Origin: Pseudomonadota bacterium
Lineage (GTDB): Bacteria > Tectomicrobia > Entotheonellia > Entotheonellales > Entotheonellaceae
DNA length: 64,000 bases
NCBI GenBank assembly: GCA_005777235.1
Contig: SXND01000083.1
Span: 16,304 to 80,303 of the forward strand
Direction: 5' to 3'
The notes below the pieces were generated by a model. That model saw only the letters and a list, made by a program, of their open reading frames with translations, was not told the DNA's origin and searched no databases. This document shows, one piece after another, positions 1,844 through 45,547 of the stretch (its first letter is position 1; each line of letters starts with the position of its first letter). A program made the translations under genes and the position numbers.

Positions 1844-3415
1844 TTATGGCTGCGGCGTGCCGTAGCCGCCCCCACCAGGCGTGGCAATGCGCAGCCGGTC
1901 CCCAGCCTCGACCCGCATATTAAACTTCGAGGGTAGCCGACGGCGGCGCGTGCCATGCTGCAGCGTGTTTTCGCCGCTGCGTGCTGGAGCGCCTCCCGCC
2001 AGCCCGTAGGGTTGCCGTATGCGCCGATCGGAGAGCATGGTCACCTGGGCGTCGCCGAGAAATTCGATCTCGCGGATGATGCCATCCCCACCGGCAAACT
2101 CCCCTGGGCCACCCGAGCCGTGACGCATGGCATACTGCGCAATACGGAACGGGAAGGCGTGTTCTAGCGCTTCGATGGGGGTGTTGAGCGTGTTGGTCAT
2201 ATGGGAATGCGTGGCGTGCATGCCTGGAAGGCCAGGGCGTCCGCCCGTGCCTCCGGCGATGGTTTCATAATAGGTATAATGCTCGCCGCGTCGTGGATCA
2301 AAACCTCCCACTGTGACGTTATTCATGGTGCCGCTACAGGCTGCAGCCACTCGATCCGGACGGGCCTGGTGTAAGGCGCCAAGGACAATATCGACAATGC
2401 GCTGCGAGGTCTCGACGTTGCCCCCGGCGACGGCGCTGGGGAAGACACAGTTGACCACGCTCCCAGCGTCGGCAATGATGTTGACGGGTGCCATGCAGCC
2501 GTAGTTAAAGGGAAATTGCGTCGTGGCTAGCGTACGAATGCAGTAATACACCGCCGACATGGTGACGGCCAGGTTGGCATTGACGCTGCCGCGCACTTGC
2601 GGATCAGAGCCGCGAAAGTCAATGTCAATGTCCTGCCCGCGTACCCGCACCGTGACGCAGAGTTTGACCGGCGTGTTGCTGATGCCATCGTCGTCCATGT
2701 AATCTTCGCAGGAGTAATCACCGTCGGGGATGTCGGCAATGACCTGGCGGGTCATACGCTCGGCATAGCGTTGCAGGGCGTCGCTGTAGCGCACCACCTC
2801 AACCATGCCATATTTGGCGATGACGTCTCGCAGACGGCGTTCGCCGGTACGATTGGCGGCAATCTGGGCGGTGAGATCGCCCTCGCGTTCGCGTGGGGTA
2901 CGCACGTTGGCCAGGATCAGGCGCAGCAGATCGTGGTGAATCCGGCCATCGACGAGAATTTTCACAGGCGGAATGCGAATACCTTCCTGAAAAACCTCGG
3001 TGGACAGCGGCATGGAGCCCGGCGTCATGCCCCCGACATCAGAGTGATGCGCCCGGTTGGCGGCAAAGAAGGCCGGGCGACTGAGGCCATCGACAAAGAT
3101 CGGCGTCACCAGGGTAATATCGGGCAGATGCGTACCACCGCCGTAGGGGTCGTTGACCAGCACGCCATCGCCTGGTTGCATGTCTACCTGCTCAATGGCA
3201 TGCAGGACGGACATGGGCATAGCGCCGAGGTGCACCGGAATGTGCTCGGCCTGGGCGATCATGTGGCCAGCGCTATCAAACAGGGCACAGGAAAAATCCT
3301 TGCGCTCCTTAATGTTGGGGGAAAAGGCGGTGCGACACAGCGTCACGCCCATTTCTTCGGCAATACCACTGAGCAGATTTTTGAACACTTCGAGGCGTAT
3401 GGGATCGTAGTCCAT
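1844..3415 (-). CDS. Hydantoinase B / oxoprolinase family protein
   Basis: MDYDPIRLEVFKNLLSGIAEEMG... ERKDFSCALFD...; C-terminal RLRIATPGGGGYG; next to HyuA-like gene. Confidence 0.9.
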   Translation of the reverse strand: MDYDPIRLEVFKNLLSGIAEEMGVTLCRTAFSPNIKERKDFSCALFDSAGHMIAQAEHIPVHLGAMPMSVLHAIEQVDMQPGDGVLVNDPYGGGTHLPDITLVTPIFVDGLSRPAFFAANRAHHSDVGGMTPGSMPLSTEVFQEGIRIPPVKILVDGRIHHDLLRLILANVRTPREREGDLTAQIAANRTGERRLRDVIAKYGMVEVVRYSDALQRYAERMTRQVIADIPDGDYSCEDYMDDDGISNTPVKLCVTVRVRGQDIDIDFRGSDPQVRGSVNANLAVTMSAVYYCIRTLATTQFPFNYGCMAPVNIIADAGSVVNCVFPSAVAGGNVETSQRIVDIVLGALHQARPDRVAAACSGTMNNVTVGGFDPRRGEHYTYYETIAGGTGGRPGLPGMHATHSHMTNTLNTPIEALEHAFPFRIAQYAMRHGSGGPGEFAGGDGIIREIEFLGDAQVTMLSDRRIRQPYGLAGGAPARSGENTLQHGTRRRRLPSKFNMRVEAGDRLRIATPGGGGYGTPQP

Positions 3416-14700: not shown

Positions 14701-14792
14701 CCTTGCCTCTCCTTCAGAGTCCACACGGCGCATGCTGCGGGCAGTTTGTCTTTTTGACAGACTCCCCACCGTAAACGGCGGGGAGTCTGGGA

Positions 14793-15376
14793 TCAACAAT
14801 CAACGCCAGCCGAGGCTTGGCTAACATGATTTCCCCCATGAGCAGATGCCCCTTCTCGGAAAATGTTGACCGCAGCGTTGGGGTCTCGCTGATGGGTTAT
14901 CCCACAATCGGGGCATATCCACACGCGGTCTCGCAGAGTGATCGCCTGGTTGACGCAGCCGCAAGCCGAGCACAGCTTCGTGGACGGAAACCACTTCCCA
15001 ATGTGCTGGACAATCGTGCCTGTTGTGCTGGCGACAGAGTGCAACGTCTCAACAAACGTGGCAAAGCCCAGGGCAGACACCTTGCGTCCCCACAGGGCTT
15101 TCATGCCAGACAGGCTGAGCGTCTCCAGGGCGATGACGTCGTAGGTTTTACAGAGTGCGTGCGCCAATTCCCCATGAAACGCCTGCCGTTGATTGGCGAT
15201 GGGCGTATGCACACGGGCAAGGTTCGCCAACGCGGGCTTGCGGTTGTGAGCACCTTTCTTCTTGCCGGCAAGCCGACGATTGACCTGGGCGAGCGCGTTG
15301 AGACTGTGCTGGAGCGGCTGTGGCGCCTGGTGTGCTGTGCCATCGCTGCCGGTGAGATAGGTCGTCAACCCACCGG
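14793..15376 (-). pseudogene. TnpB, C-terminal half (exon after group II intron)
   Basis: LTTYLTGSDGTAHQAPQ...GKKKGAHNR..., VIALETLSLSGM, CSACGCVNQ...WICPDCG...RDPNAAVNI. Confidence 0.8.
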
Positions 15377-17740
15377 GTAGCCGGAGGGTGTTACCACCCT
15401 CCAGCCCCCTAAGAACCGGACATGAGAGTTGCCCCTCATCCGGCTCAAGCCCTTGGCCGTTGTTGCCCGTCCTTTTGATGGCGTTGCCGATGGCACCAGG
15501 GGTGTACAAGGCGTTTGTGACTGGGTTCATCTGTTCCGCCTTGGCTTGTGAGGATGATATGGTCCGTCTCTATGGCTTCTCCTGCTCTAAACTGGATGTG
15601 ACACAGGGCGCACCGATATTCCTGTTGCTGGAGCAGCCTCAGCCGCTGTTGCTCGTAGGTTGCCCTTCCCACGTGTCGCTTCTTGCGCTCTACCCAGTAC
15701 TGGCGCAGGGCTGGGTCCTAAGGCGAACTTTTTCCTTGGACCTTGATGACGCGGGTGAGTGGGGTTGCATCAGGCTGCACCACTGCCGCCTTTCCCTCGA
15801 AGAATGTCCAGGAGCCATCGTCCCGAACGTCGCGTGCTTTCCCCCAGTGTTTCCCTTGGTTCGGGTGTCGGCGTGTCGCCCAATTCCCGAGCATGTGCCC
15901 TTGTACATGTCGAGCTTTGTGGCAGCCGTGTTTGGCGACACTGTGCCGGTAAGAATGCGCCCAACCCCGGAGAACGGGATGGCGTTTTTTGATTACCTGC
16001 CCCGCAGGGGCCTGCTGATGTGCGTCCAGGGAGGATCGTCTACCCCTCACGTGTGTGAGGACCTTTGCCTTGTGTGGGACGGTCAGCCGTTTGCCCTGTT
16101 GCCCGCATTGCCTGAGGTGCAACCCAAGGAAGTTCAACCCGTCTTTGAGGTGCACTCTCCGGGTTTTGGCTTCGTTCCGTGCCAGTCCTCGTGCCTTGAG
16201 GAACGTTTCTCCCCGTGGTCTGGCCTAGGTTTCCCATACTGCCCGTGTAGGAGCCGTGATCACCAAGTCGTCGGCCTATCGCATACTGGCTCTGCCTGTG
16301 TTGAGTCCTCTGCGATGGACGGGGGATGTGGGTCGCCCCTCCGCGTATGCTGCGTCGAACACCCTTTCCATCCCCTCCAGTGCCCCATGCGCCAGCCCTG
16401 GGGACATGACCCCGCCTTGTGGCGTGCCCGTGTCCGTGGGCGAGACGAAGCCGACGTCGACTCCTCCTGCTTTGAGCCACTGGCGCAACGTGGTGGTGCA
16501 TACGGGCACATGGGCCACCAAAGGGTTATGGTCAATGTGGTCAAAGCCGCCGCTCATCTCCGCGTCGAGCACCCCTGGACGACCGTCCTGACGACTCGTC
16601 GCCTTGAACATGGCCTCCATCGCCTCCCTCGTGCCGCGCCCTGGTCGCAAGCCAGAGGAGTTTGCTGCACAGCGTGCCTCCCCTTCTGGCTCCAGAGCCG
16701 CCTTGCCGATGGCCTGCATGACCCGGTCCTTGCCGGTCGGTATGCCCAAGGGTCTGTGTTTCCCGTGGTCTTGCGGGATGTCCACCCGTCTGACAGGTTG
16801 GGGTGTATACCCTTGCAGGCTCAGGTCCTCTTGCAACACCTTCCCGCGGGCTTCGGGAGTGTCGTACACCCCTCCATCCATCCCTGCCGTGTGTCTGCCC
16901 TGGTTTTCCTGGGTCATACGTCGGATCGCCAGGAGTGTGTTGGACGGAGCTCGCACAAGCACCTGCTGGAGATTTTTCCCTTTTCTCCCTGCTTGGTTCC
17001 TCGTGGCGCGGTAGAGACGTTCTTGCACGCGTCGTACATTCCCTTCCCCCTTGTGCCATTGGATGTCCGCCCATGTGGTGTAGGGGTGTTCTTTGGTCCG
17101 TTCCGTGAACATCCCTGTCGAACATCTCCAAGGATGCGGACGTTGCTTGCGTGCTCTCTCGTAAGGCCCCAACGGCAGTCTGCACCCTTTCGGGTGGGGT
17201 ATCCCCACCTGTGTGGCCCTATCCGTCCTGCTACCGAACGGCGTTCGCTTTTTCCGTCATCTTCTCCCCTCTGTTCCATCCCCCTTCCTTGCGGTCAGGC
17301 TCCCACGTCTGTGGGGAGCAGAGGGCTTACCCAGTTGTCGGTGCAGGAGCATGTGGCTCGGCTCGGTTGGCGTCTGTTCCCCGGTGAGCCTTCTTGGATG
17401 TCGTCGCCCCCGCTTTCGTTGAGACGATCCTGCTCACCCATCATGTTGGTTCTGGCCTGTCAGCCTCTTTGGCCCTGGAGGCTTCACGAGGTTTTCGCAT
17501 GACTCTTCCCTTGCGTTCACCCTTACCGTCCTTCCCTCGTCCCCCTCCGCGTCGAGGCTGGCAGAGGTCAGGCCCTTGTTCCCAGAGCTTCGTACCTCAG
17601 ATTACTCGTCAGCACGTCTGGGGAGGGACACCCGGACATCGCGGGGCTCGCAGTGGTTCCTCGCCTCCTTCTTCGATACTCCTTCATCGACCTTATGAGG
17701 CTTTACAAGGGTACGCTTGTTTCACCTCCTGGTCGCAAAC
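15377..17740 (-). mobile_element. Group II intron with degraded RT-maturase-HNH ORF
   Basis: Domain V-like 34-nt hairpin GAGCCGGATGAGGGGCAACTCTCATGTCCGGTTC (15413-15446, minus strand), DVI-like stem after it, RT/X/HNH fragments in different frames; boundaries approximate. Confidence 0.8.
15445..17208 (-). pseudogene. Group II intron RT-maturase with HNH domain, frameshifted
   Basis: 16276-17208: GIPTGKDRVMQ, DAEMSGGFDHIDH, GTPQGGVMSP. 15718-16155: maturase-like HMLGNWATRRHPNQGKHWGKARDV. 15445-15672: HNH YRCALCHIQFRAGEAIETDHIILTSQGG. Confidence 0.8.
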
Positions 17741-18320
17741 AGGCAAAGCCTGCGCTGTGACCTGTCATGACTCGGTAGATGGGTTGTTGGTCATCAAGGA
17801 TGCACGAGAAATACACGTACACATCGCCAAGGGGATCACGCTTGATAGTGACCGTTTTGATGGTGCCGTCAATCTCCTGAGACTTGGCGAATCTGTAGAG
17901 GGTGGCGCCGATCTTCAGGCGATTACCGTCGCGCAGCTTCCAGCCCGCTTGCGACAGCGTGAAGGACTTGGCGTTGCGGACCTTGCGAAAGGTCGGCGGC
18001 CCGACACGGCGCGTGATCTTCCCCGCTTGGCGCGCTTTCACGTGCGCAAAGAACGCCTTGGAGCCCTTGTCGATGCGTGCGGCAATGCCTTGGATGGCGT
18101 GGGAGCCCAGCTGCGTCCACCAGGCGTATTTGGGCAGCTTCTTCAGCTTGGTGAGGTGATTGTTGAGCGTAAAACACGACAAAGACTTCTTGTACAAACG
18201 GTCGTAGCGTCGATGCAGCGCGATGCAGGGGTTGTGGATCGCACCGCCGACGTGGATCTGGCGATGCAGCTTCCCGTTGCGCTTCCTGCGATAGAGTTTG
18301 TACTTGAACGTCTTGGGCAT
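17741..18320 (-). pseudogene. TnpB, N-terminal half (exon before group II intron)
   Basis: MPKTFKYKLYRRKRNGKLHRQIHVGGAIHNPCIALHRRYDRLYKK...YVYFSCILDD...; collinear with the C-half at 14793-15376. Confidence 0.78.
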
Positions 18321-18323
18321 GGC

Positions 18324-18470
18324 TACTGCACACCCTCACGCTTGGCTTGTTCACGGATGATGGTTTCGAGCTTAGCAGACATGCCGATACCAGACTTGTC
18401 AGCAAGTGCCCATAGCAAGCGTTTGGCTTTACGGGTGAGTGTCATGCTGGTAGAGAGTTTCTTTTCCATA
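18324..18470 (-). CDS. Small (48 aa) ribbon-helix-helix-like protein upstream of tnpB
   Basis: Minus-strand reading MEKKLSTSMTLTRKAKRLLWALADKSGIGMSAKLETIIREQAKREGVQ*, stop 2 nt before tnpB ATG; homologous to the ORF at 40482. Confidence 0.65.
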
Positions 18471-18664
18471 CCGTTGTTCTACCATGAGATACGGTAGAAT
18501 GCAATGGTGCACGCTTTTATGCTGACTTATGCCAGCACTAGGAATTGCCCAGAAGACTGGGCAAGCGCCTTATATCCCCGGCCTGAACGCCGGGGTTTTA
18601 CGGCGCCTTTGATAATAGCGGGGTCATACCGTTTGTCGTCTCTTAATCCGACTACCTGGGAGCA

Positions 18665-40380: not shown

Positions 40381-41698
40381 GCGGACTTTCCTCTCCGTCC
40401 TTCAGGGCGGAGAGGAAAGTCCGCTTGCTCCCTAGGAGTAACAGGGTTGCCTTGTGACGCAAGATCATGTACCGTTGCCTCATGGAAACTCAACAGGCGA
40501 GCAGCATGCGTCTGACCGTAGAAGCCAAGCGCCTCGTGCGAGCCCTAGCGACGCAGTCCGGTATGAGCATGACAGCGGTCCTCGCAATCATTGATCCGCG
40601 AGCAAGCTCAGCGGAAAGGCGTCCCAGAGTGTCCATCCTGACGTATCGCTACCGCATCAAAGACGCGACCTCCGGGACGCACCTGCGGCAAATGGCCGGG
40701 GCGATTAACTATGCCTGGAACTATTGCAACGAAGTGAGCCTGTTGGCGTTCCGTCGCGACAAGACCTTTCTGTCTGCCTACGACTTGCATAAACTCACCG
40801 CAGGGACATCGAAAGACTTGCGCTTGTCGGCGGATACGATTCAGCAAGTGTGCACCGAATATGTCACCAGACGGCGCCAGTTCAAGAAGGTCAAGCTGGC
40901 GTGGCGCAGTCGCAAGCGCTCGCTGGGGTGGATACCCTTCAAGGCGGCGTATATCAGGCTCCAAGGCGACACCGTCACGTACTGTGGCCAGCGGTTCCGC
41001 CTGTGGCTGTCTCGCCCTGTGGAAGGCGTTGTCAAAACCGGCAGCTTCACGCAAGACGCACGGGGCCGCTGGTCTGTCAACTTCCAGTGCGAGGTGTTGG
41101 ACGCGACCGAGCCGCTTGGCCGTCTCGATCTCGGCATTGACCTGGGGCTGAAAAGCCAAATCGCTTGTTCCGATGGCGTCATCTATCGTCGTGAGAATCT
41201 GACACGTCAGCATGCCATGGCCCTCGCCATGGCCCAACGGGCGCACAAGACACGGCGCGTCAAGGCCATCCAGGCCAAGATAGCCAACGTCCGTAGCGAC
41301 TGGACACACAAGGCGACGACGGCCATTGCCCGTCGAGGCAAGCTGATCGTTATCGGGGATGTGTCAAGCGCCCAGCTCATCCACACACCCTTCGCCACAT
41401 CAACCTATGATGCGGCCTGGCACCGCGTGAGAACCCAGTTGGCCTACAAAGCCATCAGGCTTGCTGGGGTCTGTGTGTCAGGACGTGAAACCTTCTCCAG
41501 TGTGACTTGCTCGGACTGTGGCGCCCGCTCCGGTCCGCGTGGACTGAGTGGCCTGGGGGTAAGAGCGTGGGGATGCCCTTGCTGCGGAGTCATGCACGAA
41601 CGTGATGTCAACGCGGCACGCAACATTCTCGCTTTCCGTAGCGGACGTGCTACGCCAATCAAGGGAATCCCCGTCCTGTAGGGCGGGGAGGACGTCAA
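40381..41698 (+). mobile_element. IS200/IS605-like element with RHH-like ORF and tnpB
   Basis: Left-end perfect 17-bp-stem hairpin GCGGACTTTCCTCTCCG...CGGAGAGGAAAGTCCGC; right-end CCCCGTCCTGTAGGGCGGGGAGGACGTCAA; TnpB inside. Confidence 0.7.
40482..41681 (+). CDS. RHH-like N-terminal segment in one frame with TnpB (TnpB alone probably from GTG 40629)
   Basis: METQQASSMRLTVEAKRLVRALATQSGMSMTAVL... then VSILTYRYRIKD...GIDLGLKSQIACSDG, IVIGDVSSAQL, CSDCGARSGPRG...CPCCGVMHERDVNAARNIL. Confidence 0.75.
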   Translation: METQQASSMRLTVEAKRLVRALATQSGMSMTAVLAIIDPRASSAERRPRVSILTYRYRIKDATSGTHLRQMAGAINYAWNYCNEVSLLAFRRDKTFLSAYDLHKLTAGTSKDLRLSADTIQQVCTEYVTRRRQFKKVKLAWRSRKRSLGWIPFKAAYIRLQGDTVTYCGQRFRLWLSRPVEGVVKTGSFTQDARGRWSVNFQCEVLDATEPLGRLDLGIDLGLKSQIACSDGVIYRRENLTRQHAMALAMAQRAHKTRRVKAIQAKIANVRSDWTHKATTAIARRGKLIVIGDVSSAQLIHTPFATSTYDAAWHRVRTQLAYKAIRLAGVCVSGRETFSSVTCSDCGARSGPRGLSGLGVRAWGCPCCGVMHERDVNAARNILAFRSGRATPIKGIPVL

Positions 41699-44542: not shown

Positions 44543-45547
44543 TCACGGAAACACCAGTAGCCCTTGATATGACTTGATGGTGCGGGACAGTGCCTCCTCG
44601 CCTCGGCTCGCGGCACTCTGCAGCCGCTGCTGCAAACGGCGCCGTAGTTTGCGGCTCGGGCTGATCCCCGCTCGGCTGATGCGATAGCCCAGAAAGACGG
44701 CTGGGGTGGTCGCAGGCTCCACCGCCAGACGTTTGGGATTGAGGGAGAGCCCGCGTGCCTCAGCCAGCCAGGTCGTCAGGGCTGCACGGGCTTCCAGCAA
44801 CGGCGCTTTGGTATCGGCAAACAGCACGAAATCATCCATATAGCGCTGGTAGCCAGGGATGTGCAACTGACGTTTGACAAAGTGATCCAGGCCATCCAGA
44901 AAAAAGTTCCCGCACCACTGGCTGAACCATGAGCCCAGAGGCAGCCCATACCCGGCAGTTGGACAACGCTCGCCCAGTGTCGTCGCGGCCAGGGGGCTAC
45001 GGTACACCTCGTCGCTAGAGGTAATGATGGTGCGCACCAGGGCCAGCGTGTCTGCATCCACCACACGTGTGGGGAACAAAACCAGCAGGCGGGCGTGCTG
45101 AATGCTCAAAAAGTAGGCGTGAATGTCGAGGTGGAGACGCCAGGCATAGCGGCGCATACAGGCCAGGAAATACAGCACGGCCCGATGGGGACCGCGTTGG
45201 TGGCCAGCGGCAAACGATTGTTCCAGGTAGCGACGCTCAAACACCGGGCCGATTTCGTTGAGTACGGCGTGGTGCAACACCCGGTCGCGCACGGCTGGGG
45301 CCGCAATCAGGCGGGTTTTCGGATCGGCAATGCTGTGCAGCCGCCAGGGCGATGGCCGGTAGCGCTGCGCCAGCAACTCCTGGTGCAGCGCCAACAGGTG
45401 GTAATCGCAGTCGATCTCAAAGCGCGCCACGCTCGGATGACGGCGTTTGCCACGGCGACACGCCCGCCAGGCGCGCCAGAGTGCTTCCTGGCTGGCCAGG
45501 CGTTGGTAACTGCCGGCAGCAAGGGTGTACATGGAGTCTCCAGCCAT
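44543..45547 (-). CDS. Diversity-generating retroelement reverse transcriptase
   Basis: LHLDIHAYFLSI, GYGLPLGSWFSQWCGNFFLDGLDHFVKRQL (DGR-type SQ motif), GYQRYMDDFVLF. Confidence 0.93.
   Translation of the reverse strand: MAGDSMYTLAAGSYQRLASQEALWRAWRACRRGKRRHPSVARFEIDCDYHLLALHQELLAQRYRPSPWRLHSIADPKTRLIAAPAVRDRVLHHAVLNEIGPVFERRYLEQSFAAGHQRGPHRAVLYFLACMRRYAWRLHLDIHAYFLSIQHARLLVLFPTRVVDADTLALVRTIITSSDEVYRSPLAATTLGERCPTAGYGLPLGSWFSQWCGNFFLDGLDHFVKRQLHIPGYQRYMDDFVLFADTKAPLLEARAALTTWLAEARGLSLNPKRLAVEPATTPAVFLGYRISRAGISPSRKLRRRLQQRLQSAASRGEEALSRTIKSYQGLLVFP

What the first reader, a model, noticed from the sequence alone, without database searches (positions are those of the whole stretch)
14754..18600. 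Group II intron inserted in a tnpB gene at the RuvC-I motif
The N-half ends ...IYRVMTGHSAGF and the C-half begins GLTTYLTGSDG, so the intron sits where RuvC-I (GFDFGLxTY) should be. A domain V hairpin and RT/X/HNH pieces identify the intron. With boundaries GTTTGCG...CTAC the spliced frame is open (GHSAGF-ASG-GLTTYLTGSDG). The usual RuvC-I Asp is then visible on neither side, so either the host TnpB was already catalytically dead or my boundaries are off by a few nt. The intron RT is frameshifted, so any splicing would need a maturase in trans.
Basis: partly seen in the sequence, partly recalled or inferred. Interest (0 to 1): 0.72.

Follow-up and report, generated by a model that had tools for sequence, protein, structure and literature searches.

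The report
Decayed group II intron splitting tnpB
A broken self-splicing (group II) intron sits precisely inside the catalytic-site codons of a transposon nuclease gene (tnpB), and both intron and gene are decaying relics marked by an unusual excess of A-to-C and T-to-G mutations; it is an ordinary kind of insertion with an odd mutational scar.

Summary
In detail: a 2,367-nt group II intron (minus strand, 17738..15372) interrupts an IS200/IS605-type tnpB. Domains V-VI, a bulged branch-point A and an RT-X-HNH reading frame are recognisable. Eleven uninterrupted paralogues in the same genome fix the spliced product exactly: GGC TTT GCC TGT|GGG TTG = G-F-A-C-G-L, an open 386-codon TnpB. Correct boundaries do not restore DFG: the RuvC-I Asp is Ala (GAC>GCC) and Phe is Cys (TTT>TGT). 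Two other copies (L012 and relic L081) carry the same GCCTGT; the tree requires at least two origins. The intron ORF is not frameshifted: it is one frame with three nonsense codons, one replacing the Tyr of YADD. Differences in the intron ORF are dominated by A:T>C:G transversions, as are the two RuvC-I changes and, extremely, L081 (about 29% of conserved A/T sites). The only maturase domain found in the genome is this broken one; intron nucleotide 1 is U, not G. Best reading: a typical group II intron insertion into a transposon gene, now a dead relic. New member of a known kind. The A:T>C:G-biased decay of mobile elements is the unexplained, more interesting part.

The parts
14754..18615 (-). 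whole IS200/IS605-type tnpB element, with intron
   Evidence: blastn to uninterrupted copies in the same genome starts and stops at these ends
17739..18320 (-). tnpB exon 1 (194 codons, ends GGC TTT GCC TGT)
   Evidence: NCBIfam guided_TnpB N-half
17739..17744 (-). RuvC-I codons GCC TGT (Ala-Cys) where 10 of 11 uninterrupted copies read GAY TTY (Asp-Phe); changes A>C at 17743 and T>G at 17740
15372..17738 (-). group II intron, 2367 nt, TTGCGACC...CTACCCGGT
   Evidence: empty-site comparison, Rfam RF00029, related intron L052 boundaries
17539..17645 (-). weak match to domain I (group-II-D1D4-7), below gathering score
   Evidence: 23.6 bits vs 34
15445..17208 (-). intron-encoded protein pseudogene: RVT_N, RVT_1, GIIM, HNH in one frame with TAG at 16278..16276 (Tyr of YADD), 16227..16225 and 15720..15718
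15372..15448 (-). domains V and VI, bulged branch-point A at 15378
   Evidence: RF00029 60.8 bits; fold z=-6.2, 0 of 200 shuffles as stable
14793..15371 (-). tnpB exon 2 (GGG TTG ACG ACC ... stop); RuvC-II Glu, zinc ribbon and RuvC-III Asp retained
   Evidence: OrfB_IS605 and Cas12f1-like_TNB; translation

Best explanation
A group II intron of the RT-X-HNH type inserted, in the sense orientation, between the Phe and Gly codons of the G-F-D-F|G-L RuvC-I motif of one copy of a multi-copy tnpB element (insertion shown by the empty sites; mechanism inferred: retrohoming by reverse splicing into DNA). While functional it would have spliced out, leaving an intact tnpB message. It has since decayed: the maturase has three nonsense codons including one in YADD, the 5' intron nucleotide is U, domain I is barely recognisable, and the TnpB exons lost the catalytic Asp through A:T>C:G transversions of the kind that also pervade the intron ORF and two paralogues. 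It now most likely neither splices nor moves, and even if spliced would give a nuclease-dead TnpB.
For: D5-D6 at 60.8 bits and stable fold with bulged A. Eleven uninterrupted paralogues join exactly at the predicted junction, with no gain or loss of bases. The spliced frame is open for 386 codons and matches OrfB_IS605/TNB and guided_TnpB above cut-off. The ORF is colinear with the intact intron protein of a same-family genome, 203/549 identical, with 3 TAG codons. At columns invariant in three relatives, 22 of 31 one-step changes are A:T>C:G, against 12 of 78 in the relatives themselves, Fisher p=5e-8. TnpB exons: 20 of 69 changes A:T>C:G vs 165 of 1037 in reference copies, p=0.006. Only one GIIM domain in the genome, this one. 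Closely related introns elsewhere in the genome are 5'-truncated fragments (L021, L022).
Against: D5-D6 are well preserved, so the ribozyme core has not fully decayed and splicing with an unseen maturase cannot be excluded; the genome is an incomplete MAG. Domain I and EBS1/EBS2 could not be assigned with confidence. A 6-mer ACAGGC in the intron is complementary to GCCTGT, which could mean that the intron entered an already mutated site, but it is not in a recognisable EBS1 loop, and such a match is expected by chance in about 1 of 8 cases over 500 nt.
Confidence: 0.85

Rival explanations
1. The intron inserted into a TnpB that was already nuclease-dead (GCCTGT), i.e. the AC allele is older than the insertion and was shared with L012/L081 by descent or gene conversion. 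(This rival concerns only the order of events and can be true together with the best explanation.)
For: L012 is uninterrupted, otherwise open for about 385 codons and reads GFACGL; L081 reads GCACGV; the intron holds a 6-mer ACAGGC that pairs with GCCTGT (sequence).
Against: The tree puts the window copy with DFG copies and L012/L081 with DFG copy L016; supported branches force at least two origins of AC. Window and L012 share 3 of 25 A:T>C:G sites, about the chance expectation of 2.1. The same bias occurs inside the intron, so decay continued after insertion.
Confidence: 0.3
2. Still active: the intron splices in vivo with a maturase supplied in trans, and the spliced GFAC TnpB works as a nuclease-dead, guide-RNA-directed repressor (TldR-like).
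For: Spliced frame fully open; Glu, third Asp and zinc ribbon kept; D5-D6 intact; an ORF-less group II intron on C184 suggests that trans maturases existed.
Against: No other GIIM domain in the genome; U at intron position 1 and G at the penultimate position; degraded domain I; A:T>C:G hits mostly at codon positions 1 and 2; no evidence of a conserved regulatory context.
Confidence: 0.05
3. A base-calling or assembly artefact explains the A>C/T>G changes (loss of one channel in two-colour sequencing would give exactly A>C and T>G).
For: The substitution class is the one such chemistry errors would produce (own knowledge, not tested).
Against: About 29% of conserved A/T sites over a 1.4-kb element in L081, next to an intact open reading frame; errors would have to recur at the same sites in most reads; the pattern is restricted to certain mobile-element copies and partly shared by inheritance between L012 and L081 (25 of 39 sites).
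Confidence: 0.07

Closest known systems
Group II introns residing at fixed positions of IS transposase genes (e.g. E.c.I4 in IS3-like transposases IS629, IS911, ISEc16, ISEc31; PMC3522654)
   Same: Group II intron inserted at a precise site of a multicopy transposon gene; other copies are empty sites
   Different: Host is tnpB (RNA-guided nuclease gene) of an IS200/IS605-type element, site is RuvC-I; single full copy found, degenerate
[quoted passage not shown] PMC4227781)
   Same: Self-splicing intron together with an IS200/IS605-type element
   Different: Group I not group II; in IStrons intron and IS form one composite mobile unit, here the intron interrupts tnpB internally
TldR, nuclease-dead TnpB-like RNA-guided transcription factors (named in PMC13418256)
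   Same: Loss of a RuvC catalytic residue in an otherwise recognisable TnpB
   Different: No evidence of domestication; gene is split and decaying
Group II intron in a dnaN-like gene of a same-family genome (L052)
   Same: About 37-41% identical RT-X-HNH protein, same end type (GTGCGACC...CCCGAC)
   Different: Different host gene, intact ORF, recognisable domain I

Membership tests
Group II intron | Domains V and VI with bulged branch-point A | tested here: met
   RF00029 60.8 bits; fold with single bulged A at 15378, z=-6.2
Group II intron | 5' GUGYG and 3' AY ends | tested here: not met
   UUGCG... and ...CGGU; the related intron has GUGCG...GAC; read as decay, not as a different kind of element
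Group II intron | Domain I with EBS1 complementary to IBS1 | tested here: inconclusive
   RF02012 only 23.6 bits, below 34; candidate EBS1 hairpin not stable
Group II intron | Intron-encoded RT-maturase | tested here: met
   RVT_N, RVT_1, GIIM, HNH present, but as pseudogene with 3 TAG codons
Group II intron | Precise insertion relative to empty sites | tested here: met
   11 uninterrupted copies, no base gained or lost
Group II intron | Splicing activity | not testable with these tools
   needs RNA
TnpB (RNA-guided nuclease) | OrfB_IS605/RuvC and TNB zinc domains | tested here: met
   (guided_TnpB 180 bits, cut-off 100)
TnpB (RNA-guided nuclease) | RuvC catalytic Asp-Glu-Asp | tested here: not met
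   First Asp is Ala (GCC); Glu and third Asp present
TldR (nuclease-dead TnpB repressor) | Loss of RuvC catalytic residue(s) | tested here: met
   D>A
TldR (nuclease-dead TnpB repressor) | Intact gene with conserved guide and regulated partner gene | not tested
   gene split by intron; partner and guide not examined
IStron | Group I intron associated with the IS as one unit | tested here: not met
   only a group II match in the window at gathering thresholds; intron lies within tnpB

The most novel reading that the evidence does not exclude
Copies of mobile elements in this bacterium undergo a transversion-specific (A:T>C:G, both strands) hypermutation, extreme in tnpB relic L081 and marked in the window's intron and in L012; if it is a directed process rather than a past mutator state, it would be a bacterial analogue of repeat-targeted mutation that kills tnpB and group II introns.
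Probability: 0.08. Interest if true: 0.8.

Novelty: new member of a known kind. Interest (0 to 1): 0.38.

Why it matters
It shows a group II intron using the conserved RuvC-I codons of tnpB as an insertion site, comparable to introns parked in other transposase genes; I found no report of this combination in the papers searched. The wider interest is the mutational pattern: A:T>C:G transversions that repeatedly remove the catalytic Asp of tnpB copies in one genome. If confirmed by reads, it would make the mutational fate of mobile elements in this lineage testable.

Tried and rejected
Other tnpB copies with introns at the same site: none; Rfam hits elsewhere in the genome are not followed by tnpB exon 2. 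Close relatives of the intron RT in genome contigs (one genome for each of 85,462 species): none by pattern scan. The GFAC motif in 143 other genomes: none; only L012 in its own genome. EBS1 = ACAGGC pairing with GCCTGT: not in a supported loop; an alternative loop CAGGGC could derive from AAGGUC (which would pair with GACTTT) but its hairpin is not stable; left open. Exon co-conversion by intron homing to explain the shared GCCTGT: considered because L012 has an upstream tract like the window copy, but that tract is conserved in several DFG copies and the sharing is near chance. Regional hypermutation of contig C39: not supported, a repeat at window 40638-41698 has 4 of 27 such changes. Diversity-generating retroelement as cause: DGRs mutate template adenines on one strand (own knowledge), whereas here A>C and T>G are about equal.

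Full report
What is there. On the minus strand an IS200/IS605-type tnpB element spans about 18615..14754. It is interrupted by a group II intron. Rfam finds domains V-VI at 15448..15372 with 60.8 bits. The fold is far more stable than shuffles (z -6.2) and has the single bulged A of domain VI at 15378, the seventh base from the intron end, as in the related intron L052. The intron carries RVT_N, RVT_1, GIIM and HNH domains.

Junction. The genome holds eleven uninterrupted relatives of this element, 68-79% identical over the whole element. All read straight through with six bases between the codons before the site and GGG. Applying this to the window gives exon 1 ending GGC TTT GCC TGT and exon 2 starting GGG TTG, a 386-codon open frame with motif GHSAGFACGLTTYLTGSDG. 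Because 'GT' stands at both sides, the cut could be up to two bases further left with the same product. The related intron in a dnaN-like gene of a same-family genome starts GTGCGACC and ends CCCGAC, which favours 17738..15372; the window intron then begins with U instead of G and ends GGU.

The missing Asp. Ten of the eleven empty copies read GAY TTY (DF). One, L012 (contig C43, 71-72% identical, uninterrupted, otherwise open), reads GCCTGT like the window. A further relic, L081, 20 kb away on the same contig, reads GGC TGT GCC TGT GGG. A tree with strong support separates the window copy from the L012/L016/L081 clade, so the AC state needs at least two origins. The other catalytic residues and the zinc ribbon are retained in the window copy.

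The intron ORF. It is one frame from 17208 to 15445, colinear with the intact 570-residue protein of L052 (203/549 identical), interrupted by three TAG codons. The first replaces Tyr of YADD. It is therefore nonsense-mutated, not frameshifted.

A mutational signature. Both RuvC-I changes are A:T>C:G transversions. In L081, 98 of 128 private changes are A>C or T>G in nearly equal numbers, on about 29% of conserved A/T sites, without strong sequence context. In the intron ORF, 22 of 31 one-step changes at invariant columns are of this class versus 12 of 78 in three relatives (p=5e-8). The window exons and L012 show a milder excess (p=0.006 and 0.0004). Most reference tnpB copies and another tnpB family do not show the extreme pattern. 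An IS200 tnpA family shows a moderate excess in some copies. A mutT-type defect gives this class of mutation (established knowledge), but I could not test that. An artefact seems unlikely for L081, but only reads can exclude it.

Function. Steps shown: precise insertion, intron identity, loss of an open maturase frame, loss of the Asp. Steps inferred: insertion by retrohoming, former splicing, present inactivity. No other maturase domain was found in the assembled genome. Six other RVT_1 matches exist and the two examined lack the group II maturase cut-off score. Two related introns persist only as 5'-truncated 3' ends.

Comparison. Group II introns prefer mobile DNA, and some sit at fixed sites of IS3-like transposase genes (PMC3522654). 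This is the same kind of arrangement in tnpB. Searches of the held library for group II introns with tnpB gave no such report, which is not proof of absence. It is not an IStron (group I, PMC4227781), and there is no evidence for a TldR-like role.

Noticed in passing
L088:10925-12387 (contig C39, about 20 kb left of the window copy; also L081): tnpB relic with massive A>C/T>G hypermutation (98 of 128 private changes; GC 0.69 against about 0.56), motif GCACGV.
   Followed up: partly
L012 / L089:8780-10243 (contig C43): Uninterrupted, otherwise open tnpB with the same RuvC-I change GAC TTT > GCC TGT as the window copy.
   Followed up: yes
L086, around 2025 (contig C135): A tnpB of another subfamily also lost the RuvC-I Asp, by an apparent A>C change (GAT>GCT, motif GIAVGL).
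   Followed up: no
L021:3813-3991 and L022:3508-3637: 5'-truncated 3' ends (84-87% identical) of the same intron family; the first lies just behind a decayed tnpB.
   Followed up: partly
L039, about 2360-3168 (contig C184): ORF-less group II intron of about 806 nt with a domain I related to the window intron.
   Followed up: partly
window 44678-45319 minus: Open reverse transcriptase (RVT_1, 340 aa) of another kind, with an LPLGSWFSQ motif reminiscent of diversity-generating retroelement RTs; two similar RTs on contigs C147 and C219.
   Followed up: no
own genome (G000), copies listed: This tnpB subfamily is expanded in this genome; nearest relatives found outside are about 39-47% identical (cyanobacteria, and one other genome).
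   Followed up: partly
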